In this document: piece after piece, positions 30,346-51,256 of the stretch
How positions within the stretch are numbered: position 1 is the first letter of the stretch
Layout: every line of letters starts with the position of its first letter
Origin: Methanobrevibacter sp.
GTDB taxonomy: Archaea > Methanobacteriota > Methanobacteria > Methanobacteriales > Methanobacteriaceae
DNA length: 52,022 nucleotides
Reading direction: 5' to 3'
NCBI RefSeq assembly: GCF_017468685.1
Contig: NZ_JAFUHT010000051.1
Coordinates: 1-52,022, forward strand
Made by a program: the position numbers and the translations under genes
The notes under the pieces: model-generated
Told to the model about the DNA's origin: nothing
Database searches by the model: none
What the model saw: only the letters and a program-made list of their open reading frames with translations

Positions 30346-30478
30346 TAAATATTAGTTTTACAATATTATAAAAGAAAATATGAATATTAAAAAATAAATA
30401 ATAAAAAAATGAAAATTAAATTCAAATATTAAACTAAATAACTAAAAATTTAATAATTAATTAAAAATAAAAAAAGAA

Positions 30479-30498
30479 ATAAGGAAATTAATCCTTAT
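30479..30498 (-). terminator. Hairpin over the stop codon of the 650-aa adhesin gene
   Basis: The same arms (ATAAGGA/TCCTTAT) and loop (AATTAA) as at 28258-28277, covering the stop codon at 30495-30497 and followed by T-rich sequence on the minus strand. Confidence 0.65.
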
Positions 30499-32447: not shown

Positions 32448-32515
32448 AATAAATCACATTTTTTACTTAAATATATTCAATTTGAATACAATTTAATATT
32501 AGTCGTGTAAACTAT
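32448..32515 (-). promoter_or_regulatory. Shared adhesin promoter with palindrome (copy 2)
   Basis: The palindrome ATTCAAATTGAAT at 32475-32487 lies between an AT-rich TATA-like run and the GTGATTTATT leader of the 650-aa gene. It is nearly identical to 30278-30345. A degenerate form is present before the 470-aa gene at about 28131-28143. The rest of the spacer to 32668 is AT-rich with nothing evident. Confidence 0.55.
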
Positions 32516-32668
32516 ATATGCCTTATGCTTTTTATCGAATGTTTAACCAATATTTTTTAAAAAAAGTGAATTATTTTAGTTAAATATTATAAAAATAATA
32601 ATAAATTTTCAAAATATTATAAAAATAAAATAAAAAAATGACAATCTTTTAATATATTCAAATTTTAC

Positions 32669-34813
32669 CTAAATTTTAACAGTATTTTTCAAATATGTTG
32701 CACTAATTGACTTTATTGTTTTAGGTTTTTTAACAGTCAAGCCTGCAACGCCATTTTTGTTGGTTTTAATCAGATACTTTTTGGAGTTGATTTTGACTGA
32801 GACCACTTTATTTTTGACTTTTTTGCTGATTGTGACCTTAATTACCAGTTTCTTTTTGGTTTTAGACACTTTTAAAATAATTGGCACTGCCTTTATCTTT
32901 TTTGTAAGCTTAAATCCCATATACTCAATTTTCAATGAGTATTTTTTGTTTTTGAGCTTCATTGATTTTTTAAATGTCATGATGCCTTTTTTGTTGGTTT
33001 TGATTTTGTATGTTTTGCCGTTGAACTTGACAGTCACGACCTTGTTTGCCAGTGCCTTGCCATTTTGAGTTAAAAGCTTCATTTTAACATTTATTCCCTT
33101 GAAATTTGCCTTAAAAGATATGAATTTGATTTTTGGAGCAATGACACTTAATTCCGCCCAATTATCCAAATCAGTAAATCCATCTTCACCATGATACTCA
33201 ATATTAACTTCATAATCGCCGACTTTCAGGTTTTTAAGAGACAATTTAGCGATTCCGTCTTTTACATTAATCCTGTACTGCTTTTCATCAATTTCAAATA
33301 TCACATATCCTTTGGACTGGCTTGGAACCTTAACTGTAATGTATTGGTTATCTCCTGCCGTAAATTCCCACTGGTAAGTGATTTTGGCAGCGATGTAGAC
33401 TTTCTCTGATTGGTTTTTTACCGCATAATCACTTCCGCTGTACTGTGCCAGTATGTCATGATATCCGAGATTCAGTGATGCAATGTTGATTTCAGCGTAA
33501 CCCCCTCTAAGTTTTACTGATTTGAAGTGCTTGCCGTCAGCATAAACTACCAAATCTCCCTGTGCGTCACCTGGAAGTTTAAGATACACTTTTGAATCAC
33601 TTTCAAAGTGGAAATAATACGGAATGCTTATGGAATAGTCGATTGTAAAGTTGCATGTCTTATTCAATGCATAATATTTCACATCTCCTGAGTATGACAT
33701 GAACAATGTATATGTTCCTGCCCTTAAGTTTGAAATATCTATCTCAACGATATTATTTACAGTAGTTGATCGTTTAAACTGATATGTCTGACCGTTGATT
33801 GTTGTTTTAAGCAGGTTATTGTTTAATGTATCCGGCAGATAGATTTCAAGGATGTTCTGATTGCCATATGTGAAATGGTCAGTCCATACCTCAAGGTCAT
33901 AGCTCATATTTACAGATTGTATCTTTGTTCTTGAGAAATCCTTTGAAGTGTAGATGACCTTGATTTCACGGTTTGTATATTTCAGATACCCTTCAAGAGA
34001 CATTATGAATTCCCCGTTATCCGTGTTTGAATTAACAATCAGCTTATCGTCAAGATATACTTTAACATTTCCATTGATGTTTTCCTGTGTTTTAACGCTT
34101 ATGCAGTCATCATGCCCGATGTTTATCACTTCAGGAATGCTTATTACCACATTTGTGACTGTGAAGTTGAATGTCCTGTTGTATGGATGATAATAGCTGT
34201 CTCCATGATAGACAACCCTGAATGTATGGTCTCCAAGAGACAGTCCTGAAAACGGATTATCGGAAAAGTAAACGGTCGGTCTTGATGTGGTTCTGTTTAG
34301 AAGTTCATCATCAATATAAAATTCAACTATTCCGTTAGCAGATCTTGGAAAAGCCAGAAGTGTAGAGTATTTATCACCCTGCAATATCTCCTGTGGAAAA
34401 TGAAGCATATTATAGTCCGGAGAATATTTCATTATCTTCAATGGAGTGGTGATGTTCAAATCAGCCCCATTATAAAAGGCACTTACCTTATAATACCTGC
34501 AGTCAATAGGCGGCCAGATTGAAACAACAAGTTCATGAGTCCTTTCGGGAAGTGTGATTGGAACCTTAAATGATTTTTCAGTGATTGTACGGTTATATAT
34601 TACCTCATCATCTATTTTTACGGCAAAATCCCCTGAGGCATTTTCGGGCAGTTTTACATCAATGTCGCTTAGATTCTCATGCCACATCTGCTCATCGAAC
34701 GTTACTTCGATTTTTTCGGTTAAATTGTCAGAAGTGGAATTGTCCTCTGCGCTGAGAGCACCTAAACTCAGCAAAAAAAGAATTATAAACAGCAGGAGAA
34801 GTTTGACTTTCAT
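32669..34813 (-). CDS. Secreted adhesin-like protein with Ig-like domains (714 aa)
   Basis: Signal peptide MKVKLLLLFIILFLLSLGA (cleavage about residue 21). About five Ig-like domains follow, with 'YHGDSYYHPYNRTFNFTV' and 'YSGDVKYYALNKTCNFTI' as typical edges. The C-terminal part has two successive lysine-rich modules, each with 'F.GK.Y.IKTNKKG', from about residue 565 to the end. It is related in design to the three upstream-numbered adhesins but is GC-richer in codon choice, has no shared promoter block and ends differently (YLKNTVKI). Presumed surface protein. Confidence 0.82.
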   Translation of the reverse strand: MKVKLLLLFIILFLLSLGALSAEDNSTSDNLTEKIEVTFDEQMWHENLSDIDVKLPENASGDFAVKIDDEVIYNRTITEKSFKVPITLPERTHELVVSIWPPIDCRYYKVSAFYNGADLNITTPLKIMKYSPDYNMLHFPQEILQGDKYSTLLAFPRSANGIVEFYIDDELLNRTTSRPTVYFSDNPFSGLSLGDHTFRVVYHGDSYYHPYNRTFNFTVTNVVISIPEVINIGHDDCISVKTQENINGNVKVYLDDKLIVNSNTDNGEFIMSLEGYLKYTNREIKVIYTSKDFSRTKIQSVNMSYDLEVWTDHFTYGNQNILEIYLPDTLNNNLLKTTINGQTYQFKRSTTVNNIVEIDISNLRAGTYTLFMSYSGDVKYYALNKTCNFTIDYSISIPYYFHFESDSKVYLKLPGDAQGDLVVYADGKHFKSVKLRGGYAEINIASLNLGYHDILAQYSGSDYAVKNQSEKVYIAAKITYQWEFTAGDNQYITVKVPSQSKGYVIFEIDEKQYRINVKDGIAKLSLKNLKVGDYEVNIEYHGEDGFTDLDNWAELSVIAPKIKFISFKANFKGINVKMKLLTQNGKALANKVVTVKFNGKTYKIKTNKKGIMTFKKSMKLKNKKYSLKIEYMGFKLTKKIKAVPIILKVSKTKKKLVIKVTISKKVKNKVVSVKINSKKYLIKTNKNGVAGLTVKKPKTIKSISATYLKNTVKI

Positions 34814-34868
34814 GGTAAAATATATGTTATACTGATTAATATTGTTTTAGTTTAAAAAAAGAAAAGAA

Positions 34869-34889
34869 AGTTTGATTAAAAATCAAACT
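34869..34889 (-). terminator. Hairpin terminator of the zinc-ribbon membrane gene
   Basis: 9-bp arms AGTTTGATT and AATCAAACT with loop AAA, just after the stop codon of the gene at 34891, followed on the minus strand by TTTCTTTTC. Confidence 0.65.
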
Positions 34890-34890
34890 C

Positions 34891-35745
34891 CTAGATAGTT
34901 GTGCTGACAGTTACCACACCATAATCCTTGGTGGTGCTTTCATCATCCACAACATTTCCGTCTTTTATAATTTGAACTTCAAGCTTGTCTGACCCGCTGG
35001 TCTTTTTCTGCACAGCAGCGGCAATTACATCATATTGTGACTCATCGATTTCAATGACCTCATCGCCTGTTCCCTCATACATTGTGCTGGCATCTCCATC
35101 ACCAACAGATGCTGACCAGTCAACCGGACATGAGATTCTTATCTGCAGACCCTCATCTGAGCTTACAGTGTTGATGTTTCCCACATTACTTACAAGGCCG
35201 CTGTCAACATCATCATCAGATGCTACTTGAGCGACTGCAAAAGCTCCTGCTGCAATTAAAGCAACAATAAGTAGTACAATAAGAATTATGTGCTGCGAAC
35301 GTGACATGGCCTCCGGATCAGCAATTCCAAATAATGGAGGAACCATTCTTCCTTCATTGATTGCCTCTGAGCATTTAATAGCATCATATGCTGCATAAAT
35401 AGTCCATCCCATTCCAAGAACAAGAGAGACTAAAGTGACAGCCAAACTTTCACCTGCCGCCCACTGAAGAAGCAGGTTAAAAGCCATGATAAAAGCACCG
35501 ACAGTACAGAATACCAGTCCTCTTTTATATAAACGCAGATAGAATATATGTCCGATTCCACACAGGAAATATGAAATCAGACCTCCGACGATATCAAGTA
35601 TTGGAGCTATCCATTTGTTCTTTTCAGCTGGCTTTTGGGATGTGTTTTGCGGTTTGGATGGAACTTCCGGCAATTCAGCACCGCAATCTATGCAGAACTT
35701 TGCAGGATCCGGATTTTCACATCCGCATTTTGGACAGAATTTCAT
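34891..35745 (-). CDS. Zinc-ribbon membrane protein with extracellular domain
   Basis: A 284-aa protein. Residues 1-25 form a zinc ribbon (C4-x2-C7...C18-x2-C21 in MKFCPKCGCENPDPAKFCID). Four hydrophobic helices follow at about 46-71, 77-96, 102-122 and 152-172, with an 'AYDAIKCSEAINEGR' loop. The last 110 residues after the fourth helix are acidic and probably extracellular. Such zinc-ribbon/membrane proteins are common in methanogens and Firmicutes; function unknown. It starts 13 bp after the secreted repeat-protein gene's stop, so the two are one operon. Confidence 0.75.
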   Translation of the reverse strand: MKFCPKCGCENPDPAKFCIDCGAELPEVPSKPQNTSQKPAEKNKWIAPILDIVGGLISYFLCGIGHIFYLRLYKRGLVFCTVGAFIMAFNLLLQWAAGESLAVTLVSLVLGMGWTIYAAYDAIKCSEAINEGRMVPPLFGIADPEAMSRSQHIILIVLLIVALIAAGAFAVAQVASDDDVDSGLVSNVGNINTVSSDEGLQIRISCPVDWSASVGDGDASTMYEGTGDEVIEIDESQYDVIAAAVQKKTSGSDKLEVQIIKDGNVVDDESTTKDYGVVTVSTTI

Positions 35746-35758
35746 AATATCACCTTAA

Positions 35759-36703
35759 TCATTTTACAACTATTTCTTTTAACAGATTATCATCAGCCCC
35801 GACAATTGAAACTAGCTTATTGTCTTTTGCATAAGCAAATCCTTGAACCCCTTCAATATCATAGTCATATCCTTTAACTCCATTGATTGTTTTTGAATCT
35901 CCTGCAACCTGTTCAACAACGGAATTGTCAACTTTACGCTTGTCATATGATATTACACTGAATGTTATGTTGTCTTTACCTTTCTTGAAGGTTTTCTCGG
36001 AGATGAACATTTTAACGCCATTTTCGAGTTTCTGTTCGTAATCATCAAATGATGCGCTTGCATCCTCATTATATCCGTCCGGAAGCTTGAATTCTATTCC
36101 TTCAATGATTACCTTTTTGGTAGTGGTTTTAGGAGCGGATGTGTCTTTATTGTCAGCATCAATCTGTGCACCGTTTCTAAGTATGATATACTGGCCGTTT
36201 TCAAGGGTTATGTCCTTGTCGGTTTTGAAGTTGTCGTTTTCAACGATATCTTCAATCTGATGTCTGGAATTCTTGGTTATTTCAATATATGCCTGCTCTT
36301 CAGTGGATTTGACAGTATATTTCCCTGCAGGGATGTCATCGCCTACCTTATACATTCCTTCCTTATAGTGTCCGTCTTCAGCTTCCCTGTCTGGAGAGTC
36401 ATCAAGCTCGTATAAATCACCACCCTGAATTTCAAGGTATTCTCCGTCTTCAACTGTGATGTATACCCCACCGTGTGTGTTGAGGTTGTAGATAACACTG
36501 TCAAGATCACCTGAAGAGTCTGATGAAACTGCAAGGTAAAGATTGTAGGTATTGCATTTCACATAATATTCGCCTGCAGGAAGATCATCGCCCACCTTAT
36601 AGGTACCGTCGCTGAGCAAAATATCTTCAGCACTTACATAGCTTATAGCTGCCACAGCAACTATTAAAATTAGAAATATTTTAAAAAAAGTTTTATAATT
36701 CAT
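35759..36703 (-). CDS. Secreted protein with two 'VGDDxPAGxY' repeats
   Basis: A 314-aa protein with signal peptide MNYKTFFKIFLILIVAVAAI (cleavage near residue 25). Two repeats begin 'DGTYKVGDDLPAGEYYVK' (about 32-49) and 'EGMYKVGDDIPAGKYTVK' (about 114-131). The same '.Y.VG.DIPAG.Y' motif is known from secreted bacterial lipoprotein-like domains of unknown role. The C-terminal 120 residues form a separate domain, 'IEGIEFKLPDGYNEDASASF...', like small membrane-associated domains in methanogens. It precedes the zinc-ribbon membrane gene by 13 bp, suggesting a joint envelope function. Confidence 0.72.
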   Translation of the reverse strand: MNYKTFFKIFLILIVAVAAISYVSAEDILLSDGTYKVGDDLPAGEYYVKCNTYNLYLAVSSDSSGDLDSVIYNLNTHGGVYITVEDGEYLEIQGGDLYELDDSPDREAEDGHYKEGMYKVGDDIPAGKYTVKSTEEQAYIEITKNSRHQIEDIVENDNFKTDKDITLENGQYIILRNGAQIDADNKDTSAPKTTTKKVIIEGIEFKLPDGYNEDASASFDDYEQKLENGVKMFISEKTFKKGKDNITFSVISYDKRKVDNSVVEQVAGDSKTINGVKGYDYDIEGVQGFAYAKDNKLVSIVGADDNLLKEIVVK

Positions 36704-36739
36704 ATAATCTCCTCATTTATTGAAAAAAAAAGAAAAATA

Positions 36740-36759
36740 AAGAGGAAATAATTCCTCTT
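36740..36759 (-). terminator. Hairpin over the stop codon of the 525-aa surface gene
   Basis: 8-bp arms AAGAGGAA and TTCCTCTT with loop ATAA, overlapping the stop codon at 36758-36760, followed on the minus strand by TTATTTTTCTTTTTTTTTC. Confidence 0.7.
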
Positions 36760-38335
36760 AGACTACTTTAATAACTTGGACATGTGTATAGAAATATCCA
36801 ACTGAATAATGGTTGTGAGTAGTTGTCTTACCACATCCAGGGCATTTGAATCTGGAAGTTGCCTTAACCTTTTTGCTGCTGGATTTATATTTATGGGATG
36901 CTGGAATATATTTCAGCTTAACAACTTTATTAATAACTTTTTTATAAGTTTCAGTGTTACCGCTCATTGATTTAAAATGTTTCATTCCCAAACCATACAG
37001 CAATACTTTAGCTTTTCCATTTTTAACGGTAGCATAACTGGTTGCACCGTTAGCTCTGATTTTAAGCTTACCGTCTTTAACATTCTTACCACTAGTAGTT
37101 TTAACCTTTATAGTGATTATTTTACTGGCAGTGGAATAAATAGAATATTGTTTTTTCATTACAATTTTGGTTTTAAGACGTTTTTTCAAAACAGCTTTAG
37201 CTTTAACCTTTTTAGAAGCCTGTAAGTTGGCATTTCCATTAAATTTAGCAGTGTATTTGTAGGTTTTGGTTTTACTTAATTTAATAGATTTAGTAGCCCA
37301 TCCATTTTTAACAGCAACTTTATAGGTTTTACCGTTGATTTTGAATGTGACTGTTCCTTCGTTAACAGCCTTACCATTACTGGTCACTTTTGCCTTAATA
37401 GTTGTCTTGAAACCTTTATACTCAGTCACTTTATAAGCTTTAATACTTACAGGGGCTTTAGTGATTACAGCAGTTTTTGTAACAGCAGCTGCAGTTACGT
37501 AAGATAATTGTGATGAAAATGTAACACTCCAAGTTCCAACACCTACAGCAGGTGTGAATGAAATATAACCGTTGGAATCAGTTACATAAGATTCTTTTAC
37601 CTCAGTACTGCCTTTTTTATATACCACATTCAATCCCATAGATGTAAGAGGATTTCCTTTTGTATCAGTTACTCTTGCAGTCATGGTTCCGGTATTATAA
37701 ACCCCATTGAAATCATTTGCAGTAATTACTGCGTTTCCACTAACCTTAATTGAATTTGCACTCATAAGGTTGCCATCAGCTTTATTATATGCACCTACCA
37801 TATAAAGGCCTGGTTTAAGAAAATTTTTTCCAAGAGTGATATAGTAATTACCTGCAGAGGCTGAACCTTGATCACCATAGTAATATTGGGTTTCCTGAAC
37901 TTGAGTGCCATGCACATCAAAAAAGACAAACTTGAAATTATACGCTTCAGTATAATACATACTATATGGACTAAGATAATAATAGAACTTTCCACCACTT
38001 GTTGATGAAATCTGATTGTCGTCTAAAATTTTAACAGTATACTGATATGAATAAACAGGTATAGCTGCTGAAAGAGCCTCCTCAGATTCATCCTTAGATA
38101 TTATTGAGTCATCATTTACAGTAGATAACACCTCATCATTTTCTTCAATTGCAACCTCATCATCTGCTGTTGCTTCATACGTATCCTCACCAACATCTGC
38201 TACTATCTCCTCCACTTCCTGATTATCAGTTGCTATAGTATCAGTAGCATTATCTGCAGCACTAACAGAGGACATAGCACAAATACTTACTATTAATAAC
38301 AGTAGGATTAATAATCCACTCTTCTTTTTCAACAT
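36758..38335 (-). CDS. Secreted Ig-like surface protein with C-terminal CxxC/HxH motif
   Basis: A 525-aa secreted protein: signal peptide MLKKKSGLLILLLLIVSICA (cleavage about residue 26), an acidic linker (27-90), about four Ig-like domains, the later ones basic ('GTVTFKINGKTYKVAVKNGW', 'KLKIRANGATSYATVKNGKA'). Unusually, the C-terminus is a short cysteine/histidine segment, 'FKCPGCGKTTTHNHYSVGYF', which looks like a half zinc site or a redox CPGC pair on the outside of the cell. No other protein in the cluster has it. A wall- or partner-binding role is possible. Function unknown. Confidence 0.8.
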   Translation of the reverse strand: MLKKKSGLLILLLLIVSICAMSSVSAADNATDTIATDNQEVEEIVADVGEDTYEATADDEVAIEENDEVLSTVNDDSIISKDESEEALSAAIPVYSYQYTVKILDDNQISSTSGGKFYYYLSPYSMYYTEAYNFKFVFFDVHGTQVQETQYYYGDQGSASAGNYYITLGKNFLKPGLYMVGAYNKADGNLMSANSIKVSGNAVITANDFNGVYNTGTMTARVTDTKGNPLTSMGLNVVYKKGSTEVKESYVTDSNGYISFTPAVGVGTWSVTFSSQLSYVTAAAVTKTAVITKAPVSIKAYKVTEYKGFKTTIKAKVTSNGKAVNEGTVTFKINGKTYKVAVKNGWATKSIKLSKTKTYKYTAKFNGNANLQASKKVKAKAVLKKRLKTKIVMKKQYSIYSTASKIITIKVKTTSGKNVKDGKLKIRANGATSYATVKNGKAKVLLYGLGMKHFKSMSGNTETYKKVINKVVKLKYIPASHKYKSSSKKVKATSRFKCPGCGKTTTHNHYSVGYFYTHVQVIKVV

Positions 38336-41279: not shown

Positions 41280-41480
41280 TTAATCTAAATTATCGGCAAT
41301 ATTATCAAACATTGCCTCATCAAATTCTAATCCCCTTTTCTCAAATATAGTTCGTAGCATATCCATTCCTGTTGGAATATTAGGGTCATTAATTCTTTCC
41401 CTAATTTTTTCATGCTCTTCAGGTGTGGGTTTTTTTGTACAGTAGTATTCTGCACAATGTATTTTTGATTTAATAGTCAT
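41280..41480 (-). CDS. Small partner protein of tandem cassette, copy 1
   Basis: A 66-aa charged protein (MTIKSKIHCAEYYCTKKPTP...) of unknown family. Its start overlaps the stop of the 216-aa gene by one base (TAATG), so the two are translationally coupled. It is homologous to the 59-aa protein at 42335-42514: both have 'C.KKPT/RKLPT.EE', 'R...DP.I.TG.D.L' and an acidic end 'FDEAMFDN' / 'YDEIFAD'. Cys residues at 9 and 14 might bind metal. Conservation of a tiny partner in both copies argues that it is a real gene. Confidence 0.65.
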   Translation of the reverse strand: MTIKSKIHCAEYYCTKKPTPEEHEKIRERINDPNIPTGMDMLRTIFEKRGLEFDEAMFDNIADNLD

Positions 41481-42130
41481 TAGTCATACCCCATTCTAGT
41501 TAATTGTATACCTTTTATGTTTTTATCATTTATATAATTTGATAATGCAATCCCATACATAATATCACAAATATCATTAGCTTTTTCAGAATCCGAATAT
41601 TTTTCATCACAATCATTTTGACAAGATTTTAAAATTGATCGAGCATATTCTTTTAAAAATAAATGAAATAAAATATTTATTCCTTTTGATTTTAAAATCA
41701 ATAGTTCTTTTACGCTTGCAACTAATTCATAATCCTCAAAATCTCTTATTAAAACACCAAAATTTCTATCAGATGGAGGAGAATATGAATCTTTTGTATG
41801 ATTATGAATAGATACAACATGATGCCCTTCAAACTCACCATCATCAAATGTTATTTTAACATTATTTTTTATTCCTTTTGCACATTTAAGAATTTCTCCA
41901 GTCACATAATCAAAATATACTACAAATTCATAGTCAAGATTTCGAGTTTTTTTAATGAATTCATCAACTGTTTTAAATGCCTCATCACTGAATTCAGACG
42001 GCAGATCCTCCATTCGAATTGAGGAAACATTTTCGGTTTTCAATTTTTGATAATCTTCAAAATCATCGCCAATATCCAACATACAAACTAATAGCACATA
42101 TACACAAATTAAAATATTTCTAAATTTCAT
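41480..42130 (-). CDS. JAB/MPN-like protein of tandem cassette, copy 1
   Basis: A 216-aa protein. Residues 5-20 (NILICVYVLLVCMLDI) form a signal or membrane helix. The core has E79 (TGEIL) and 'VVSIHNHTKDSYSPPSDRNF' with H109-x-H111 and D121, which resembles the HxH...SxxD metal site of JAB/MPN-type peptidases, one residue short of the standard spacing. A deubiquitinase-like or amidase role cannot be inferred. The first 111 codons plus 110 bp upstream are almost identical to the second copy at 42548-43165, while the 3' half differs strongly. The small partner follows with one base overlap. Confidence 0.6.
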   Translation of the reverse strand: MKFRNILICVYVLLVCMLDIGDDFEDYQKLKTENVSSIRMEDLPSEFSDEAFKTVDEFIKKTRNLDYEFVVYFDYVTGEILKCAKGIKNNVKITFDDGEFEGHHVVSIHNHTKDSYSPPSDRNFGVLIRDFEDYELVASVKELLILKSKGINILFHLFLKEYARSILKSCQNDCDEKYSDSEKANDICDIMYGIALSNYINDKNIKGIQLTRMGYD

Positions 42131-42547: not shown

Positions 42548-43165
42548 CTATATGATTTTATCATTTATATACTTTAATAATTCACTCCCATATATAATAT
42601 CATGCATTTTGTTGATTATTTCATCATCAGAATATCTAGAAACACACAATTCAAGACAGGAGTCTGCAATATCATCAGAACAAATATTCAACAAAAATGA
42701 TAACCCCTTATACACTCCTTTGGCCTCTAATATCCAGAATGAACTAAAACCTGCAACCAATTCATAGTCTTCAAATGGTCTGTCAAAAATTCCAAAATTT
42801 ATGCCCGATGGAGCAGACAAGGAATACTTACTGTGATTATGAATGGACGCCACATGATGCCCTTCAAACTCACCATCTTCAAATGTTATTTTAACACTAT
42901 CTTTTATCCCCTTTGCACATTTAAGAATTTCTCCAGACACATAATCAAAATATACTACAAATTCATAATCAAGATTTTGAGTTTTTTTAATGAATTCATC
43001 AACTGTTTTAAATGCCTCATCACTGAATTCAGACGGCAGATCCTCCATTTGAATTGAGGAAACATTTTCGGTTTTCAATTTTTGATAATCTTCAAAATCA
43101 TCGCCAATACCCAACATACAAACTAACAGTACATAGACACAAATTAAAATATTTCTAAATTTCAT
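42548..43165 (-). CDS. JAB/MPN-like protein of tandem cassette, copy 2
   Basis: A 205-aa paralog of the gene at 41480. The first 111 residues differ in only a few positions, but from residue 112 the sequences part: 'SKYSLSAPSGINFGIFDRPF' here, 'TKDSYSPPSDRNFGVLIRDF' there. H109-x-H111 and E79 are kept, but position 121 is Gly instead of Asp, so the presumed metal site is incomplete. The protein ends at TAG where copy 1 has AAA, losing about ten residues. It might be inactive, or have a binding role only. Confidence 0.6.
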   Translation of the reverse strand: MKFRNILICVYVLLVCMLGIGDDFEDYQKLKTENVSSIQMEDLPSEFSDEAFKTVDEFIKKTQNLDYEFVVYFDYVSGEILKCAKGIKDSVKITFEDGEFEGHHVASIHNHSKYSLSAPSGINFGIFDRPFEDYELVAGFSSFWILEAKGVYKGLSFLLNICSDDIADSCLELCVSRYSDDEIINKMHDIIYGSELLKYINDKII

Positions 43166-44068: not shown

Positions 44069-46981
44069 TCAGTCATTGACAAAATAGGAATACATCTCTT
44101 CGGAAACTTCACTTTCGATGTGGAATTTGAAGTTGACTATAGGATGGGTCTTGCCGTCGATTTCCCTGTACATCTGTTTATAGCTTAATGGAGTCATCCT
44201 GCCGATGTAGTAAAATTCAATTCCCTCATCATTGTTTTTCTGAATGAACAGTTCAATTTCCAAGTCAGTGTAGTTGATTAGAGGTTCCAGTTCCTTTGAA
44301 GAGGTTTTACGATTGTTTCTACTCATCCAGTTGAAGGAGTCCTTGGTTATGAAGTGGTCTTCGTAGTTGATGGTTTGTGAGATGTCTTCGGACTTGTGGT
44401 AGGTTACAAATATTGGACATGTATTGTATTTAATCTTGTATCCTCCGATGTTTTGACCGTTCATGTAGTATTTCCAGTCAAGAAGTCTCAGCGCATCCTC
44501 ACGTGAGTATTTTTCATACAGCTTGAATCTGGAGTCAGATTTGTATACGCTTTCGTATTTGTGGAATGCATACTGCAGCGCATCGTTTAGATGTTCATAA
44601 AATATTGGATTTGAAAGTGATTTTTTAAACTGGTCGGATATTTCAAACCTGTCATCTGATGATGATTTGAAAAAGAGATTTTCAGGATTTTTTACCAGTT
44701 TTTCAATTGTGTTTGCCTGATATCCGTCGCCTTTTTCCTTGCGGTAAAAGTCCAGGCTCAGATAGTTGATTGCACCTTTAATTGAATCGGTTTGGTTAGT
44801 GAGATTGAAATTGTCATTAAGGTATTTCTCAATTTGAGGGACTGTAAAGTATTTGTTGATTTTCAAGCATTCCAGAATAACCAGCTCATGTGGCCTGATT
44901 CCTTTTAGAAGTTTTTTAGTGATGAATTTAAGAGGGTCGATTTCATCGTCTGGAATCTCTGAAGTGTAGTCATCCTCAATGTCTGACAGGAAATCATGGT
45001 ATGTCGGATAATCCTTGTGCGCAAGGATCAGTTCAGGATTGAATTCTCCGTTAATTGCGAAGTCATAAAGTGAAGGGATCCTTCCCAACTTGTATTTTAA
45101 TTGAGTGTACTTTTCTTTAAACAAGGCCTTTCTGTTGAATGAAGTGTTGTTGATTGAATCATATATACGCTTTTGTGAAATCTCATCAAAGTTGATTGAA
45201 GAGGCACCGGGAATAATCTTGTTTCCCTCCATCAGATATTTCCTAATACGATCCTTGTCATAAGTCCTGTCACCTGAAAGGGCAATCGGAATCATGAAAT
45301 TGTTTTTGTAGTTTCCGATAAAGTCAAGAATAACCACATACTCCTTGTTTTTGTATTTCCTAAGGCCCCTTCCAAGCTGCTGGATGAAAATGATTGGAGA
45401 CTCGGTAGGCCTGACCAAAAGAACCTGATTGATTTCAGGAATGTCAACACCCTCATTGAAAATGTCAACAGTGAAAATAAACTCAATTTTATCCGGATTT
45501 GCATCATTGGTCAGCCTGTCAATGGCATCACGTCTTTTTTCCTGTGCGTCATCACCTGAGAGAAACACTGACTTATATCCCCTCTGGTTGAATTTGTCTG
45601 ACAATAATTCCGCTTCCCTTTTTCTTGAACAGAATACCAATGCCTTTCTTCTCTCGCCTGAATATGAATAGAATTCCGATTTTTCAATAAGATAATCAAC
45701 ACGCTCATCAGATGCCAGGAGATTGAAATCAGTAAAATTATCATCGATTTCACCGGTATCGAATTCAACATCACTGATACCGAAATAATGGAACGGACAT
45801 AACAAATCCTCTTCCAAAGCTTCCTGCAAACGGATTTCATGGGCAATGTTGTTGTCAAACAAATCATAAATGTTAAAACCATCTGTACGCTCAGGTGAAG
45901 CGGTCATGCCCAGCAGAAATTTTGGTTTAAAGTAATCCAATACTTTCAGGTATGACAGAGCCCCCGCCTTGTGCACCTCATCCACTACAATATAATCAAA
46001 GTGGTCTTTTGAAAACTTGGTGTAAACATCCTCCTTAGACATGGTCTGGATGGTTGAAAACAAATATGGACTGTCATAATCCTTGTTGTTACCAGTTAAC
46101 AGACCGAATTTTTCATGGTCAGTGAATACGTTTTTGTAAGCTTCAATTGACTGTTTGGCAATCTGTTCCCTGTGAACCAGAAAGAGAAATCTTTCAGGCC
46201 CAAAATCATCAACTGCAAAAGCAGATGCATAGGTCTTACCGGTACCTGTGGCCGATACAAGGATGGCACGGGACTCTCCATGACTTATTAGATTTCTGAT
46301 ATTTTCAAGAAACTGCTCCTGCATATAGTTTGGAGTTAAAGTGACATGCTCATCTTTAATCTTTTGGGTAAGCTTTCTTAAATTGGTGAACTTTTTGTTG
46401 GCATCATAGATTTTTTCATACTCGGGAAGTGCATCTTCAAGACTTGCCGCATTTTGCCATAACTCATTGAATTCGGAGCGAAGTTCCAAAAGAATCTCAC
46501 CTTCCAACATCGAGGTGAACTCAACATTCCATTCCTTGTTGACAGTAAGTGCATTCATGGTCATGTTGGAACTTCCGACAATTCCAGTAAAAACATCCCC
46601 TTTTTTGAATATATAACCCTTTGTGTGAAACCCCTCATTTTTTTGCAAATAGAGTTTGATTTCAATATTTTTAAAATCATTAAGTTTTCTTAACGCCTTA
46701 GGTTCTGTAAAAGTCAGATAGTCAGTGGTGAGGATTTTACCCTTAATATTTCTCTTTTCTAGATTGCGAAATTCTTCCAGTAAAGGAGTGATTCCGCCCA
46801 TGGTGATGAAAGCAGCAGAGATTATGAACTCATCACAGTTTCTGAGTTCATCCCTGATTGAATTTATGACCTTGGAGCGATTATTGTTGTATAATAATTT
46901 TGGACGAAAATCAGAGCTGGAGCTGGAATGCTGATTTATAAAAGCGGTTTTCGCACCATTCAGGATTTCATCCATGTTCAT
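44069..46981 (-). CDS. PLD-nuclease / SF2 helicase / DUF3427 protein
   Basis: A 970-aa protein with three parts. Residues about 30-180: phospholipase-D-type nuclease with H119-x-K121 and 'GSSNMT' (136-141). Residues about 210-580: superfamily 2 helicase with Walker A 'SATGTGKT' (243-250), 'DEVHKAG' (334-340), 'GMTASPERTD' (358-367) and 'QLGRGLRKY' near 540. From about 600 to the end: DUF3427, often found with this helicase type. The set suggests an ATP-driven DNA translocase with its own nuclease, of the sort found in defence islands. It is the last gene of the operon. No strong ribosome site, and the Met at residue 3 is an alternative start. Confidence 0.88.
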   Translation of the reverse strand: MNMDEILNGAKTAFINQHSSSSSDFRPKLLYNNNRSKVINSIRDELRNCDEFIISAAFITMGGITPLLEEFRNLEKRNIKGKILTTDYLTFTEPKALRKLNDFKNIEIKLYLQKNEGFHTKGYIFKKGDVFTGIVGSSNMTMNALTVNKEWNVEFTSMLEGEILLELRSEFNELWQNAASLEDALPEYEKIYDANKKFTNLRKLTQKIKDEHVTLTPNYMQEQFLENIRNLISHGESRAILVSATGTGKTYASAFAVDDFGPERFLFLVHREQIAKQSIEAYKNVFTDHEKFGLLTGNNKDYDSPYLFSTIQTMSKEDVYTKFSKDHFDYIVVDEVHKAGALSYLKVLDYFKPKFLLGMTASPERTDGFNIYDLFDNNIAHEIRLQEALEEDLLCPFHYFGISDVEFDTGEIDDNFTDFNLLASDERVDYLIEKSEFYSYSGERRKALVFCSRKREAELLSDKFNQRGYKSVFLSGDDAQEKRRDAIDRLTNDANPDKIEFIFTVDIFNEGVDIPEINQVLLVRPTESPIIFIQQLGRGLRKYKNKEYVVILDFIGNYKNNFMIPIALSGDRTYDKDRIRKYLMEGNKIIPGASSINFDEISQKRIYDSINNTSFNRKALFKEKYTQLKYKLGRIPSLYDFAINGEFNPELILAHKDYPTYHDFLSDIEDDYTSEIPDDEIDPLKFITKKLLKGIRPHELVILECLKINKYFTVPQIEKYLNDNFNLTNQTDSIKGAINYLSLDFYRKEKGDGYQANTIEKLVKNPENLFFKSSSDDRFEISDQFKKSLSNPIFYEHLNDALQYAFHKYESVYKSDSRFKLYEKYSREDALRLLDWKYYMNGQNIGGYKIKYNTCPIFVTYHKSEDISQTINYEDHFITKDSFNWMSRNNRKTSSKELEPLINYTDLEIELFIQKNNDEGIEFYYIGRMTPLSYKQMYREIDGKTHPIVNFKFHIESEVSEEMYSYFVND

Positions 46982-46983
46982 AA

Positions 46984-47133
46984 TTACTGCTCTTCAAGGT
47001 GTTTTATTAAATCTTCAAGTTTGGTTATTTGGATTTGGAACTCCTCTTCTTTTGGAGTGCCTTTGACCTTTTCCAACTTGTTTTGGAGTTCTTCAAGTTT
47101 ACGCTTTGCTAAAGTGATTCTTTTGTCTGTCAT
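46984..47133 (-). CDS. 49-aa coiled-coil protein
   Basis: A short ORF with a normal ATG and stop: 'MTDKRITLAKRKLEELQNKL' and further heptad-like Leu/Ile residues up to 'LIKHLEEQ'. It would form one long charged helix or a helical hairpin. It begins one base after the NUDIX gene stop and ends two bases before the helicase ATG, so it is embedded in the operon. Function unknown; an adaptor or oligomerisation role between neighbours is a guess. Confidence 0.7.
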   Translation of the reverse strand: MTDKRITLAKRKLEELQNKLEKVKGTPKEEEFQIQITKLEDLIKHLEEQ

Positions 47134-47134
47134 T

Positions 47135-47527
47135 TCAATCATCCATAGTTTCTTTTAGGTAATCTATGATTTTTAAATCGGCAGGAATCCAGTTGACATC
47201 GTTTAGTTGATCTTTAGTGAGCCATCTTGCATCGTTATGTTCTAAAAGCTTTGGAGTTCCCTTTTCAATTATTGCCTCATAGCATGACATCTTAAGATAA
47301 AAAGTAGGATACTGGTATTCGAGGTCAAGGGCAAACTTGGTGGGTTTTATTGTGCAGTCGAGTTCCTCTTTGATTTCTCTTATTAAAGCTTCCTCTTTTG
47401 TTTCTGAATTTTCTATTTTTCCGCCTGGAAATTCCCACATGTTAATGAATTCACCATAGCCTCTTTTGGTTGCAAGGATTTTATTGTCCTTTTTGATAAT
47501 AGCTGCAACAACATTTAAAGTTTTCAT
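47135..47527 (-). CDS. NUDIX hydrolase (MutT-like)
   Basis: A 130-aa NUDIX protein. The NUDIX box 'GGKIENSETKEEALIREIKE' with 'EL' following fits GX5EX7REUXEE, and 'VVAAIIKKDNKILATKRGYG' with 'NMWEFPGGKIE' matches the MutT (8-oxo-dGTPase) group. It would hydrolyse a modified nucleoside triphosphate or another nucleotide. Placed inside a McrBC-like operon, it may act on a modified phage nucleotide or a signal rather than in general housekeeping; that is inference. It is 45 bp after the McrC-like gene. Confidence 0.9.
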   Translation of the reverse strand: MKTLNVVAAIIKKDNKILATKRGYGEFINMWEFPGGKIENSETKEEALIREIKEELDCTIKPTKFALDLEYQYPTFYLKMSCYEAIIEKGTPKLLEHNDARWLTKDQLNDVNWIPADLKIIDYLKETMDD

Positions 47528-47572
47528 GATTGTTTCTCCTGGTTAAATATAGGGCAGCTTACGTTATAAATG

Positions 47573-49447
47573 TTAATTATTGCTTACCCATTCTCGAGTA
47601 GTCAAACCCTTATTAAACAGTAAAGTCCAAATAACTTCTTTAATAAATGATTCCAAATCATCCTCTTCAAATCCGTCATTTCCAGGAGTTAAAGAAAATG
47701 CTCCAACAGAAGGGATTACAGTATTTGTTTCTAAGAATTTTTTTGTTCTGTTTCCAGGATATAAAACATATGACCCTTCAGTTAGTAAAATTGAATCTTT
47801 ATAGGTATGCATTTTATAGATATCTCCATCTTTAAAAAGCCTTTCTTTTTCTTCAAGAGAATCTCTTTTTTCTATTTCCTCATCTAATTGTTTATTTGAT
47901 TCAATTGTATCATAATAATCTATTATTTCCAGTTCTGACCTATATTTAGCATCAAAATGAACATAGTTAATTTCATCATTTATTTTTACAAGCAGTGTAT
48001 AATCCGGTTTAAATGCAAGTGAATAAGACCGGTATTGCGATCCATCTGAAAATCTTAAATTGTAAAACAAATCTATTTCAATATCATGGCCATATAAATT
48101 CAAATGAAAAGTTTTACGAGACCCAATTCCTTTTTTAATACTTATTGACCAGTTATCCTTATTGATTTTAAATACATCTTCAAAATTAATCTTTTTTATG
48201 CTCAATTCATTTAAAACTTTTAGCAATTTAAAATAGCACCAATATTCATATAATTCAGATAATTTCTTTTCAAAACCCTTAAATTGATTGTTTATCTCAT
48301 CCCAACTTAATCTAAATGAAAATTCAAGCATCAGGAAGTATTGAAATATTTCCCTATATCCCTCTTTTTTCTGCAGTATCTGTGAGTTAAATGGAACATA
48401 ATCCATTGTTGAAATATGATTGAAAAACTTATTTGACAGGAAATATTCCATTTCTTCTTCAAATGACAGCAGTTTATCTTTAATATAACCTTCTTTAGAT
48501 GTTTTAAGTAGCTTTTCAATTAACTCCAGTATCAATTCCAAAAAGTATTTGAAAAACCTGTTTTCAGCAACATCAATGATGTCCTCATGTTTGGTTTGTT
48601 CTATTTCACGAGGAATATAACCATTTAATTTTTCAACTATTTTAAAATCAGCATCTGATTTAGATAGATTATTTGACTTTGAAACCATATTTTTTAAAGT
48701 ATTCTGATTTACATTTGATGCAAATGAAATTGGAACAGTTTCTGTATGATTTATCAATTGTGAGTGTAAATTTTTAGAAATGTATTCAAATATGGAAGGC
48801 AAATTATCACGACGGAAAAGATACTCCAAAAACATGAAATCTTCATAATATGTTTCTTTTTGTCTATAATCAAGTTCAAATTCCTGATATAAAGGAGAAT
48901 TAACTTCAAATATTAAACTTAATGCATGCTGTGACAAATCAGCTATCATTGCTGAGTATTGGTTAAAGTAATCTATTTTTTTAGATCGAACTTCAATTGG
49001 AATTTTAATCGAGTTGACCCCATCTTTTCTGATATCCAAAAATGATTTTCCGACATAGCTTCTGAAATTCAAAGTGCCTGCAATTTTATAATTCTTCTTA
49101 TCACCCAAATCAAACCTAAACTCTTTAAAATGACTATCATTAATTTTTATTAATGAATACAACACATCATAAGAAGCATTAACATCTTTTGATTCGAATA
49201 GTACCTGATACTCAGTTTCTTCTAAAAATAGTAATTTAGCAAAATTGGCTCCAATGTCTGGACAATATTGAATGGGAGTCAAGTTATCGGGCTCATCAAC
49301 AATTGGAACATTAATTAAGGTTATTGAATGAGAAATATCCCTATTGGAATCTTTGCTACCCCTATAATCCAGCGAACTAATTGTTAAAGTTCCAAGATTA
49401 TCTGATTCCTCATCAGTCAAATGAATTATTACTTTTTGCTCAATCAT
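47573..49447 (-). CDS. McrC-like DUF2357 endonuclease
   Basis: A 624-aa protein. The N-terminal 290 residues are strand-rich (DUF2357 type), the middle is helical, and the C-terminal part contains a PD-(D/E)XK nuclease core: 'FKPDYTLLV' with D482 and 'HFDAKYR' with D499-x-K501. This is the layout of the large McrC relatives paired with McrB, which cut DNA when the AAA+ partner hydrolyses nucleotide. It starts 6 bp after the McrB-like gene, as in other mcrBC pairs. Whether it cuts modified DNA, as E. coli McrBC does, cannot be told. Confidence 0.85.
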   Translation of the reverse strand: MIEQKVIIHLTDEESDNLGTLTISSLDYRGSKDSNRDISHSITLINVPIVDEPDNLTPIQYCPDIGANFAKLLFLEETEYQVLFESKDVNASYDVLYSLIKINDSHFKEFRFDLGDKKNYKIAGTLNFRSYVGKSFLDIRKDGVNSIKIPIEVRSKKIDYFNQYSAMIADLSQHALSLIFEVNSPLYQEFELDYRQKETYYEDFMFLEYLFRRDNLPSIFEYISKNLHSQLINHTETVPISFASNVNQNTLKNMVSKSNNLSKSDADFKIVEKLNGYIPREIEQTKHEDIIDVAENRFFKYFLELILELIEKLLKTSKEGYIKDKLLSFEEEMEYFLSNKFFNHISTMDYVPFNSQILQKKEGYREIFQYFLMLEFSFRLSWDEINNQFKGFEKKLSELYEYWCYFKLLKVLNELSIKKINFEDVFKINKDNWSISIKKGIGSRKTFHLNLYGHDIEIDLFYNLRFSDGSQYRSYSLAFKPDYTLLVKINDEINYVHFDAKYRSELEIIDYYDTIESNKQLDEEIEKRDSLEEKERLFKDGDIYKMHTYKDSILLTEGSYVLYPGNRTKKFLETNTVIPSVGAFSLTPGNDGFEEDDLESFIKEVIWTLLFNKGLTTREWVSNN

Positions 49448-49453
49448 TTAAAT

Positions 49454-51181
49454 CTAATTAATAAATGAAACATATCTTTGATCAGACAATACTTTAGCCA
49501 TGTTTTGAAGCTTTAATGCAGATGTATAATATCTTGAGTTTTCTTTTGTGACTTCAAAGTTTTTAGGATTTTCATTATTGTTTCTTTCAACCAAACAGAT
49601 ATTAAACAAGTTTGTTACGACATTTCCAATAGCTTTTTCAGATCCATGTAATTTTGGAAGGATTTTTTGTTTGATTTGCGCATCAAAGTATCTTTCCCAA
49701 TTATTCCACTCTTTAGGTTCGTTTTCATATCTCCATGCAACTACCATAAATCTTAAAATTTCGTTGATTACCCTAAAACCAAAATCAAAACTGGAATCTT
49801 TAAGAGTTTCCTGAAAACCTGTGAGCTCCATTGCCAAAGTATCCCATAAATTATCCTCACCATTATAAATTTGAGATAAAATTTCCTTTAAATCTTCAAT
49901 GTTTAAATTAGAGATATCAGAATCTTCAAGTGGAGATTGCAAGTAATTAATGTCTCCTTTAAAATCATCATCACTGGAATCAGATAACATATAATCCCAT
50001 GCGCGCAAAGTATCAAATTCAATAGTATTTGCCCTATCCAATACTTTTGGTGAGAACATATAAGTTGTTTCATCAACATTAACAGTACCTATTATGAAAA
50101 GATTATCTGGAAGTTTTAAAGTCTCATTATTACCATATAATGGAATTTCTTCACCACTTTCAATAGCTGACAGGAAATCAGCAAAATATCTTTCAACATG
50201 TGACAGATTCATTTCGTCTAAAATTAAAAAGTAGGGATTAGTTGGATCATTTTTAGCCTGTTTAATTAATTCATATGCAGGAGTTGACTGATAATCTTCT
50301 GTAATTACATTATAATATCCGACAATATTGGTATTATCAGTCCAATTTGCTCCAATAGGTATTATTTTATATAAATCTAGGTAATTATTAGTTAAATCCG
50401 GAACATTCTCAAAAGAATCATCAACATTAATTATAATTTCAACATCTTGATCCTTTTTTTGTTTTAGATGTTTTTGAATTTTTTTATCTTTTTCATAATA
50501 TAACTTTCCCGTAATTCGAATTTTAGCCCAATATTCCTTGCCATTTACAAAAATACTTCCTTCACAATAACTTTTTGGAAAAACAGTATATTTATAGAAA
50601 TCAGTTTCTAAATTCCATTCTGGTTTTTTACCCCGATTATCATATGAACAAAAATTGGAAGTTTGATGAATTTCAGCTTTATGATCTATAGGTATAGGAA
50701 CATTACTAATAAATTTATTTACTAACTCCGAATTGATATTGAAATAGGTCTCATCTTTTCCTGAATCTAAAATTTGTTGAAAATAATTTGTTAATTCCTC
50801 ATCCTTATATCTTAGCTGAACTAATAAATAAATTGACCCCTTTGCAGGTATTCCATCAATAGTTAAATCATAGTTCCCCTCATAATATTCAAAAGGAAAT
50901 ATATTTTTAATTGAATCCCTACCTATAGTTGCCCAACGATTTTGATTTAAAACAGAATCAGTCAAATTAATTTTTATTAGAGGATGAGAAATTTTGCTTG
51001 ATATAAATTTAGCAAACAATTGAGATAATTTTGTTTTTCCAGTTCCAGAATTCCCAGTTAATATTTCAAATGGCTTAACCTTTAATGACAACAAATAGTT
51101 TTCAATCAATTCTTTATCAAAATAATATCCATTAGAAATTAAATATCTATAAAATGAATCAACCTGTATATTTTCAGACAT
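49454..51181 (-). CDS. McrB-like AAA+ NTPase
   Basis: A 575-aa AAA+ protein. Walker A 'GNSGTGKT' is at residues 43-50, the pore-region motif 'PIGANWTDNTNIVGYY' at about 275-290, Walker B 'YFLILDEMN' at 317-325, and 'GTVNVDETTYMFSPKVLDRA' at 365-384 corresponds to the McrB GTPase signature area. It lacks a DNA-reading domain before Walker A (only 42 residues), but has an extra domain of about 180 residues at about 85-270 between Walker A and the pore motif, which may take that role. The ATG at 51181 is chosen: a longer frame from a TTG at 51241 would begin inside the TATA box. First gene of the operon. Confidence 0.87.
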   Translation of the reverse strand: MSENIQVDSFYRYLISNGYYFDKELIENYLLSLKVKPFEILTGNSGTGKTKLSQLFAKFISSKISHPLIKINLTDSVLNQNRWATIGRDSIKNIFPFEYYEGNYDLTIDGIPAKGSIYLLVQLRYKDEELTNYFQQILDSGKDETYFNINSELVNKFISNVPIPIDHKAEIHQTSNFCSYDNRGKKPEWNLETDFYKYTVFPKSYCEGSIFVNGKEYWAKIRITGKLYYEKDKKIQKHLKQKKDQDVEIIINVDDSFENVPDLTNNYLDLYKIIPIGANWTDNTNIVGYYNVITEDYQSTPAYELIKQAKNDPTNPYFLILDEMNLSHVERYFADFLSAIESGEEIPLYGNNETLKLPDNLFIIGTVNVDETTYMFSPKVLDRANTIEFDTLRAWDYMLSDSSDDDFKGDINYLQSPLEDSDISNLNIEDLKEILSQIYNGEDNLWDTLAMELTGFQETLKDSSFDFGFRVINEILRFMVVAWRYENEPKEWNNWERYFDAQIKQKILPKLHGSEKAIGNVVTNLFNICLVERNNNENPKNFEVTKENSRYYTSALKLQNMAKVLSDQRYVSFIN

Positions 51182-51235: not shown

Positions 51236-51256
51236 ATACAATTTATATATAAACAG
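51236..51256 (-). promoter_or_regulatory. Promoter of the McrBC-like operon
   Basis: A TATA box (rc of ATTTATATATAAAC, 51241-51254) stands about 60 bp upstream of the chosen mcrB-like ATG. This would give a leader of about 30-35 nt. AGGT about 7 bp before the ATG is a weak ribosome site. No other promoter is seen before the following four genes, whose gaps are 45 bp or less. Confidence 0.5.

What the first reader, a model, noticed from the sequence alone, without database searches (positions are those of the whole stretch)
44069..51181. Five-gene McrBC-like operon with NUDIX, coiled-coil and PLD-helicase partners
Seen: five minus-strand genes with gaps of 6, 45, 1 and 2 bp behind one TATA box. 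Known: McrB + DUF2357 McrC form nucleotide-driven restriction systems, and PLD/SF2/DUF3427 helicases occur in defence islands. Inferred: these five act as one anti-phage module in which NUDIX removes or makes a nucleotide (for example a modified phage dNTP), and the helicase-PLD degrades the cut DNA. The combination with a NUDIX hydrolase and a 49-aa linker protein is not one I recognise as a named system.
Basis: partly seen in the sequence, partly recalled or inferred. Interest (0 to 1): 0.78.

Follow-up and report, generated by a model that had tools for sequence, protein, structure and literature searches.

The report
McrBC beside a NUDIX–SauUSI restriction pair
Five neighbouring archaeal genes look like two separate DNA-restriction modules side by side, one of which pairs a known methylated-DNA shredder with a nucleotide-cleaning enzyme that accompanies it in many bacteria and archaea and may keep the cell's own DNA from being attacked.

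Summary
The five minus-strand genes and their gaps are as described. The 970-aa "PLD helicase" is a full-length relative of SauUSI, the known 5mC/5hmC-dependent type IV restriction enzyme. The NUDIX goes with SauUSI: of 60 genomes drawn from the genus, 44 of 46 with SauUSI carry it and 0 of 14 without. It lies within 600 bp of SauUSI in 68 of 80 loci kept from a genome-wide scan; my McrC profile found nothing in those 80. NUDIX–SauUSI has its own conserved promoter-like element inside the 45-bp gap; its exact 14-mer occurs once in 26 of 60 genomes, in all 26 just before a NUDIX. McrBC is an exchangeable upstream neighbour: adjacent to NUDIX in 23 of 29 McrC genomes of the draw, replaced by a Pbe-like module in 11 loci, absent in others, never with Pbe. 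The NUDIX has a NudG-type (5-methyl-dCTP hydrolase) signature; I propose that it removes modified dCTP and so protects host DNA from SauUSI (untested). McrB carries a hypervariable tandem insert, shared with a Pbe-linked protein. Verdict: not one five-gene system but a recurrent pairing of two modules, with a plausible new role for the NUDIX. A 2020 figure legend already notes MutT homologues beside SauUSI in Streptococcus.

The parts
49454..51181 (-). McrB-type GTPase, 575 aa; Walker A GNSGTGKT, NxD signature (NVDE)
   Evidence: AAA_5; PADLOC PDC-M26A; 6HZ4/6UT6; alignment of 24
50396..51010 (-). Hypervariable insert in McrB (residues 58-262): two tandem copies of a ~95-aa unit, inferred target-recognition part
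   Evidence: hhalign half vs half 98.2%; differs sharply between near relatives; AF2 pLDDT 89.4; unit shared with Pbe-linked protein
47573..49447 (-). McrC: DUF2357 + PD-(D/E)xK nuclease, 624 aa
   Evidence: PF09823 E 5.6e-52; PF04411 E 7.5e-32
47528..47572 (.). 45-bp gap with promoter-like element of NUDIX-SauUSI: TATA box 47565-47570, AGGAG ribosome site 47536-47540 (both read by eye)
47554..47567 (-). Conserved element ATAACGTAAGCTGC just before NUDIX
   Evidence: once in each of 26 of 60 genomes; all 26 occurrences begin 27-42 bp before a NUDIX ATG
47135..47527 (-). NUDIX hydrolase, 130 aa, PADLOC candidate PDC-S07, NudG-type EH..AD signature
46984..47133 (-). 49-aa charged ORF, looks like a coiled coil by eye, optional in relatives
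44069..46981 (-). SauUSI-type type IV restriction enzyme: PLD nuclease, SF2 ATPase, coupler, SRA-like TRD (DUF3427), 970 aa
   Evidence: PDLC03658, 735.8 bits, 11-969; 7CLG 722 bits, 12-969
51243..51252 (-). TATA-like box upstream of McrB (read by eye)

Best explanation
Two modification-dependent restriction modules lie head to tail. Upstream is an McrBC of the NxD type, whose hypervariable tandem insert in McrB probably reads the target. Downstream, from its own promoter, is a NUDIX-(linker)-SauUSI cassette. The SauUSI homologue recognises 5-methyl- or 5-hydroxymethyl-cytosine with its SRA-like domain, translocates on DNA and shreds it. The NUDIX is its dedicated partner, of the NudG/MutT2 type that hydrolyses (d)CTP and 5-methyl-dCTP. 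By removing modified dCTP released or made during infection, it would keep modified cytosine out of host DNA, so that SauUSI does not attack self. Shown here: gene identities, NUDIX-SauUSI linkage, a conserved promoter-like element, modularity of McrBC. Inferred from homology: SauUSI target and shredding. Inferred only: transcription from the element, NUDIX substrate in this organism and its anti-autoimmunity role.
For: SauUSI: full-length match to 7CLG and to PADLOC mREase_IV. Pocket residues Tyr831, Phe841, Asp858 (roles from PMC7913695) are kept in 42/42 genus homologues over 900 aa and the His of HxK in 42/42; Trp868 is kept in the window. NUDIX linkage: 44/46 SauUSI genomes vs 0/14 without, Fisher p 7e-12; the 2 exceptions have SauUSI at a contig end, and in one of them (L104) a 76-aa ORF clusters with NUDIX. 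Beside SauUSI in 68/80 scanned loci in three arrangements: 43 upstream, 19 downstream same strand, 6 downstream opposite strand. Also in an S. aureus record (NUDIX WP_000755954.1 overlaps the start of the SauUSI match by 2 bases; identical to PDB 5X1X), two Lactobacillaceae and Hymenobacter. NudG signature: E96/H97/D117 at 95/97/97% of 115 linked NUDIX, as in E. coli NudG; MutT has EG..AN. NudG hydrolyses 5-methyl-dCTP (PMC3744803, PMC10742078 passages). Own element. Modularity: of 44 loci, 22 with McrC upstream, 11 with Pbe, 0 with both, 11 with neither.
Against: The NUDIX substrate is not tested; NCBIfam scores NudG (81.2 bits) and MutT (80.4) alike for the window protein, both below cut-off, and RefSeq calls E. 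coli NudG a 5-hydroxy-CTP diphosphatase. 12 of 80 SauUSI loci lack a NUDIX within 600 bp, four of them with under 1 kb of flank on one side; outside the genus but in the order 5 of 16 loci lack it; a second, truncated SauUSI copy in G001 (L097) has none. In the window Met829 of the model is Gly and Ile842 is Val. SauUSI and McrC do co-occur within the genus (27/46 vs 2/14, p 0.005), so some cooperation is possible. No expression data. Genomes of one genus are related, so these counts are not independent events.
Confidence: 0.48

Rival explanations
1. NUDIX is an antiviral effector rather than a guard: it depletes modified (or all) dCTP during infection, so that the virus must either use unmodified cytosine or stall, while SauUSI cuts whatever modified DNA is made.
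For: Same linkage and same NudG signature; phage kinases that phosphorylate 5-methyl-dCMP and 5-hydroxymethyl-dCMP are reported (PMC10742078 passages).
Against: If modified dCTP is removed, viral DNA escapes SauUSI, so the two would partly oppose each other; the tight pairing fits a guard better (inference). No direct test.
Confidence: 0.22
2. All five genes act as one anti-phage system: McrBC cuts modified DNA, NUDIX edits nucleotides, the helicase-PLD degrades the fragments.
For: McrC-NUDIX in one order and strand in 23 genomes, 22 with SauUSI on the same contig; McrC is enriched with SauUSI in the genus (p 0.005); gaps of only 6, 45, 1, 2 bp in the window.
Against: 19 of 46 SauUSI genomes in the genus draw have no McrC match, none of 80 scanned loci has one in the flanks held and none of 16 loci of the order outside the genus shows one over 45 bits; own promoter-like element; in G055 McrC is broken while NUDIX and SauUSI frames are intact; McrC without SauUSI in G040 and G047; opposite-strand ORFs lie between McrC and NUDIX in L079, L086, L091, L094, L096 (homologous ORFs elsewhere for those in L091 and L094 only).
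Confidence: 0.12
3. NUDIX is an ordinary MutT-like housekeeper (8-oxo-dGTP) that protects DNA from oxidation and is linked to SauUSI only by historical co-transfer.
For: NCBIfam scores MutT and NudG alike for the window protein.
Against: EH..AD instead of EG..AN; close NUDIX absent in 14 of 14 SauUSI-less genomes; adjacency kept in three different arrangements.
Confidence: 0.1
4. The conserved element before NUDIX is a recombination or insertion boundary where modules are swapped, not a promoter/operator.
For: McrBC, Pbe or other genes end shortly before it.
Against: It contains the TATA box, begins 27-42 bp before the ATG mostly in two classes that fit leaderless and ribosome-site starts, and the exact 14-mer occurs only once per genome, so no second copy marks the far end of a module.
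Confidence: 0.15

Closest known systems
SauUSI (Staphylococcus aureus type IV restriction enzyme, PDB 7CLG)
   Same: Homology over residues 12-969, PLD HxK, SF2 motifs, SRA-type TRD with most pocket residues kept
   Different: Archaeal, Met829 replaced by Gly; often a 49-aa ORF in front; target sequence unknown and coupler/TRD differs sharply between two close relatives
E. coli McrBC
   Same: McrB GTPase motifs, McrC DUF2357 + PD-(D/E)xK, adjacent genes
   Different: NxD instead of NxxD; the variable part is an insert after Walker A, not an N-terminal ADAM domain (ADAM from PMC11090510 passages)
NxD-branch McrBC / CoCoNuT systems (PMC11090510: section 6 and passages)
   Same: NxD signature followed by E
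   Different: No CnuH-type SF1 helicase or RNA-related domain recognised in the array; no coiled-coil fusion recognised (no coiled-coil predictor was run); the paper calls CoCoNuTs nearly absent in archaea
E. coli NudG (Orf135) and mycobacterial MutT2
   Same: NUDIX box, EH/DH..AD signature, size
   Different: Linked to a restriction enzyme; 28% identity to NudG in the alignment; substrate untested
PADLOC candidate PDC-S07
   Same: NUDIX matches it at 160.7 bits
   Different: Listed as a candidate of its own; here and in 68 of 80 scanned loci a NUDIX of this kind is the neighbour of SauUSI

Membership tests
SauUSI-type type IV restriction enzyme | PLD nuclease + SF2 ATPase + coupler + SRA-like TRD on one chain of about 950 aa | tested here: met
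   match 12-969 to 7CLG 14-953
SauUSI-type type IV restriction enzyme | Catalytic HxK and modelled 5mC-pocket residues (Tyr831, Phe841, Ile842, Asp858, Trp868, Met829) | tested here: inconclusive
   HxK, Tyr831, Phe841, Asp858, Trp868 kept; Ile842 is Val, Met829 is Gly
SauUSI-type type IV restriction enzyme | Cleaves only 5mC/5hmC DNA, ATP-dependent | not testable with these tools
   needs purified protein
McrBC | McrB GTPase with Walker A and NxxD/NxD; McrC DUF2357 + PD-(D/E)xK next to it | tested here: met
McrBC | GTP- and modification-dependent cleavage | not testable with these tools
   biochemistry
CoCoNuT | NxD motif | tested here: met
   definition
CoCoNuT | Long coiled-coil fused to McrB/McrC | tested here: inconclusive
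   no such Pfam hit; insert modelled as beta-rich; no coiled-coil predictor run
CoCoNuT | Types II/III: SF1 UPF1-like CnuH helicase and CnuE effector | tested here: not met
   the only helicase in the array is the SF2 SauUSI homologue
NudG-type (5-methyl-)dCTP pyrophosphatase | NUDIX box with catalytic residues | tested here: met
   (R50, E51, E54, E55 in all 115 rows)
NudG-type (5-methyl-)dCTP pyrophosphatase | NCBIfam NudG equivalog cut-off | tested here: not met
   81.2 bits against cut-off 156 (MutT 80.4 against 97.9 also missed)
NudG-type (5-methyl-)dCTP pyrophosphatase | Hydrolysis of 5-methyl-dCTP | not testable with these tools
   enzyme assay; I therefore say 'NudG-like', not NudG
One five-gene system | All five co-occur wherever found | tested here: not met

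The most novel reading that the evidence does not exclude
NUDIX-SauUSI is a self-sanitising restriction cassette: a modification-dependent nuclease that travels with an enzyme scrubbing its trigger (modified dCTP) from the host's nucleotide pool. In this archaeal genus it sits, behind its own promoter element, at the end of an exchange slot whose alternative occupants (NxD McrBC, Pbe-like module) share a new hypervariable tandem recognition domain, so that new target specificities can be plugged in upstream while the SauUSI target domain is exchanged independently.
Probability: 0.33. Interest if true: 0.75.

Novelty: new variant of a known kind. Interest (0 to 1): 0.56.

Why it matters
SauUSI is a main barrier to gene transfer into S. 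aureus (PMC7913695), and type IV enzymes raise a general question: how does a cell with a nuclease against modified cytosine avoid attack on its own DNA when modified nucleotides enter its pool? A widespread NUDIX neighbour with a 5-methyl-dCTP-type signature, for which I found no explanation in the papers searched, offers a direct and cheap test. It would also suggest a function for PADLOC candidate PDC-S07. The shared tandem domain in McrB and the Pbe-linked protein is a candidate DNA-recognition domain.

Tried and rejected
Rejected: one operon with a single promoter, on sequence evidence only. Rejected: linker as a required connector; no tblastn hit (52-aa form) in 16 of 44 loci, though so short a query is weak and some loci without a hit keep a 165-190 bp gap that could hold a diverged copy. 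Not adopted: CoCoNuT membership (no CnuH/CnuE; coiled coils not properly tested). Not settled: what the McrB insert is. Pfam and a PDB sequence-profile search gave nothing credible; Foldseek had no match at E<=0.001; VIA-align best Z 3.3 (3.8 A over 76 residues, a sliding clamp). This is inconclusive, not proof of a new fold. The whole-McrB model was mediocre (pLDDT 72.5, pTM 0.46); its Foldseek list was led by McrB structures, none at E<=0.001. My McrC profile search of the 80 loci (nothing even at E<=10) used a profile trained on this genus plus three plasmid McrCs, and missed the cut DUF2357 fragment annotated in L119, so I checked with Pfam DUF2357 in the genomes of 50 of the 80 loci: 3 of 50 have one, none within 10 kb of SauUSI (nearest about 15.5 kb in Paenibacillus antarcticus, if contig C2 is the same record as L142). 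In L119 (L. plantarum plasmid) a DUF2357 gene lies about 5 kb after SauUSI, so proximity outside the genus does occur. Pbe-like modules were recognised by clustering with proteins of L102 and L098; only those two loci's proteins (and one each of L065, L091, L110) went to Pfam and PADLOC. Viral contigs were not searched.
Full report
WHAT IS THERE. The genes are as described to the base: five minus-strand genes, McrB 49454-51181, McrC 47573-49447, NUDIX 47135-47527, a 49-aa ORF 46984-47133 and a 970-aa protein 44069-46981, with gaps of 6, 45, 1 and 2 bp. The window is an archaeal contig. Contigs with the lengths of G003:C24 and G059:C45 of the genus draw bear the name Methanobrevibacter in the named scan (L179, L184), so I call the genus Methanobrevibacter, by inference.

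THE LAST GENE IS A SauUSI RELATIVE. The 970-aa protein matches PDB 7CLG, the S. aureus SauUSI structure, over 12-969 with 722 bits, and the PADLOC type IV model PDLC03658 over 11-969 with 735.8 bits. SauUSI is an ATP-dependent enzyme that cuts S-5mC-NGS or 5hmC DNA and shreds the stretch between sites (PMC7913695: abstract and sections 3, 24, 25 read). Of the residues which that paper models in the flipped-base pocket, Tyr831, Phe841 and Asp858 are kept in 42 of 42 genus homologues over 900 aa and Trp868 in the window alignment. Ile842 is Val in all 42; Met829 is Gly in the window and most others.

NUDIX BELONGS TO SauUSI. In 60 genomes drawn evenly from the genus, DUF3427 was found in 46 and a close NUDIX (E below 1e-35) in 44. 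All 44 are among the 46 and none of the 14 others has it (Fisher p 7e-12). The two exceptions, G019 and G022, have SauUSI at a contig end; in G019 (L104) a 76-aa ORF before it clusters with NUDIX. Against this, a second, truncated SauUSI copy in G001 (L097) has no NUDIX. A scan of GTDB genomes with a SauUSI alignment kept the best 80 loci. A NUDIX lies within 600 bp in 68 of 80: 43 upstream, 19 downstream on the same strand, 6 downstream on the opposite strand. Leaving out the six loci named Methanobrevibacter or Methanobacteriaceae it is 64 of 74 (my count). Annotated examples are S. aureus, Latilactobacillus, Lactiplantibacillus and Hymenobacter plasmid records. The S. aureus partner is identical to PDB 5X1X. 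In the same order but outside the genus, 11 of 16 loci read have the NUDIX (15 of the 21 such SauUSI genomes were fetched). The pairing is not wholly new: a figure legend in PMC7641849 says that small proteins adjacent to SauUSI homologues in Streptococcus are MutT homologues (section 11 read). Searches for SauUSI with nudix, DUF3427 with nudix, nudix with modification-dependent restriction, SauUSI with MutT, and pyrophosphohydrolase with type IV restriction found no further discussion (only papers in that open library, and of the hits I read only passages of PMC7159879, PMC7641849 and PMC9146914; PMC9409062 only in the listing). PDC-S07, the PADLOC label of this NUDIX, appears in six papers. 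In passages of two of them, PMC11514479 and PMC12988326, I saw it only listed; the first marks tested systems in bold, which the text held does not show. The other four I saw only in the listing.

WHAT THE NUDIX MAY DO. In an alignment with E. coli proteins the window NUDIX and two of the four named linked ones (S. aureus, Hymenobacter) share Glu-His ... Ala-Asp with NudG; the two Lactobacillaceae ones have Ala-His ... Ala-Asp; MutT has Glu-Gly ... Ala-Asn. Across 115 linked sequences these are E 95%, H 97%, D 97%, and the catalytic R50, E51, E54, E55 are 100% (a few genomes enter twice). [quoted passage not shown] passages). RefSeq names E. coli nudG a 5-hydroxy-CTP diphosphatase. [quoted passage not shown] This suggests that NUDIX removes the precursor that would mark host DNA for SauUSI. 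Against a firm call: NCBIfam scores NudG and MutT equally for the window protein, both below cut-off. The step from signature to function is inference.

OWN PROMOTER ELEMENT. Upstream of NUDIX in the genus lies tAaA.T.TATAAcGTAAGCTGC.aaATAtt, within 3 mismatches of the 14-base core in 32 of 43 loci with enough sequence. The exact 14-mer occurs once in each of 26 of 60 genomes; the control, the pattern read backwards, once in 60. All 26 lie just before a NUDIX: 25 by the coordinates, and the 26th (G043:C224) is followed by the first codons of a NUDIX before its contig ends. In one search the element (3 mismatches or fewer) is present in 18 of 22 loci with McrC upstream, 7 of 11 with Pbe and 7 of 11 with neither. 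Its distance to the ATG falls mostly in two classes, about 27-29 and 35-42 bp, as expected for leaderless and ribosome-site starts. In the window it is 47554-47567. So the single-TATA reading fails on sequence; no transcript was mapped.

McrBC IS AN EXCHANGEABLE NEIGHBOUR. McrC was found in 29 of 60 genus genomes. In 23 it is adjacent to NUDIX in the order B-C-NUDIX, or C-NUDIX at a contig end; in 2 (G007, G021) contigs break there; in 4 (G026, G032, G040, G047) it is not adjacent. Among 44 loci with NUDIX and SauUSI, 22 have McrC upstream (within 1.6 kb), 11 have a module whose PbeA helicase and PbeC DndD-like ATPase were identified in L102 and by clustering elsewhere, 7 of the 11 also with a D12 adenine methyltransferase nearby, 0 have both, and 11 have neither, five of these with under 1 kb of upstream sequence. 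G001 has a divergent McrBC (38-39% identity) in the same place; G055 has a broken McrC before intact NUDIX and SauUSI frames. Outside the genus, the 4 genomes of the order with both McrC and SauUSI have them on different contigs (G071, G072, G114) or about 30 kb apart (G085). None of 80 scanned loci gave an McrC match in the flanks held, and 3 of 50 of those genomes have any DUF2357. One exception to separation is noted: an L. plantarum plasmid with a DUF2357 gene about 5 kb after SauUSI. G+C in the window is 28% for McrBC and 35-38% for NUDIX to SauUSI, and SauUSI exceeds McrC in 22 of 22 loci with both. McrC presence is still enriched with SauUSI in the genus (27/46 against 2/14, p 0.005), so a functional benefit of the pair is possible.

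SPECIFICITY PARTS DIFFER SHARPLY BETWEEN NEAR RELATIVES. Between L065 and L088 SauUSI is 82-97% identical over the first 600 residues and 31-61% after, in coupler and TRD. Between L065 and L092 the McrB core is 89-97% and the first 300 residues of the frame 23-57%, while McrC is 89-98%. I read this as exchange of recognition parts. The McrB insert (window residues 58-262) is a tandem duplication (hhalign 98.2%), well modelled (pLDDT 89.4, pTM 0.82), with no convincing solved relative. Three loci have an insert of about 100 aa, one unit. A profile of the unit finds, among the ORFs listed for the 53 genus loci, only McrB (24) and one protein of the Pbe-like loci (8 members in 8 of the 11 loci, E 7e-17 to 1e-24), supported by profile comparison (98.8% over 84 columns). 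A model built from both occurs in 52 of 151 genomes of the phylum draw. So the two alternative neighbours of NUDIX-SauUSI share a recognition-like domain.

VERDICT. Two type IV-like modules side by side, recurrent in one genus, not a single five-gene machine. The parts with real interest are the NUDIX partner of SauUSI, its private promoter-like element and the shared tandem domain.

Noticed in passing
window 41480-42130 and 42548-43165 (-): Two tandem paralogues (216 and 205 aa) just downstream of SauUSI; members of the same cluster lie in several other genus loci.
   Followed up: no
window 28274-38335 (-): Row of large proteins, four with Big/Ig-like domain hits (two above Pfam cut-off), adhesin-like.
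   Followed up: no
L080, L098, L102, L107, L109, L112, L113, L115: Pbe-like module with a 319-632 aa protein carrying the McrB insert unit; no PADLOC or Pfam hit for the two members tested, L102 and L098.
   Followed up: partly
L072, L075, L113 (G014, G021, G046): Loci without the promoter element where a 102-aa ORF of unknown family precedes NUDIX, which then starts with TTG.
   Followed up: partly
L119 8880-9200: A gene annotated nucleotide pyrophosphohydrolase follows SauUSI in an L. plantarum plasmid, a second nucleotide enzyme at the same locus.
   Followed up: no
L085 (G040): McrBC without NUDIX-SauUSI, on the same contig as a relative of a gene (alanyl-tRNA synthetase in L065) that in L065, L073, L088 and L092 lies downstream of SauUSI, suggesting loss of NUDIX-SauUSI there.
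   Followed up: partly
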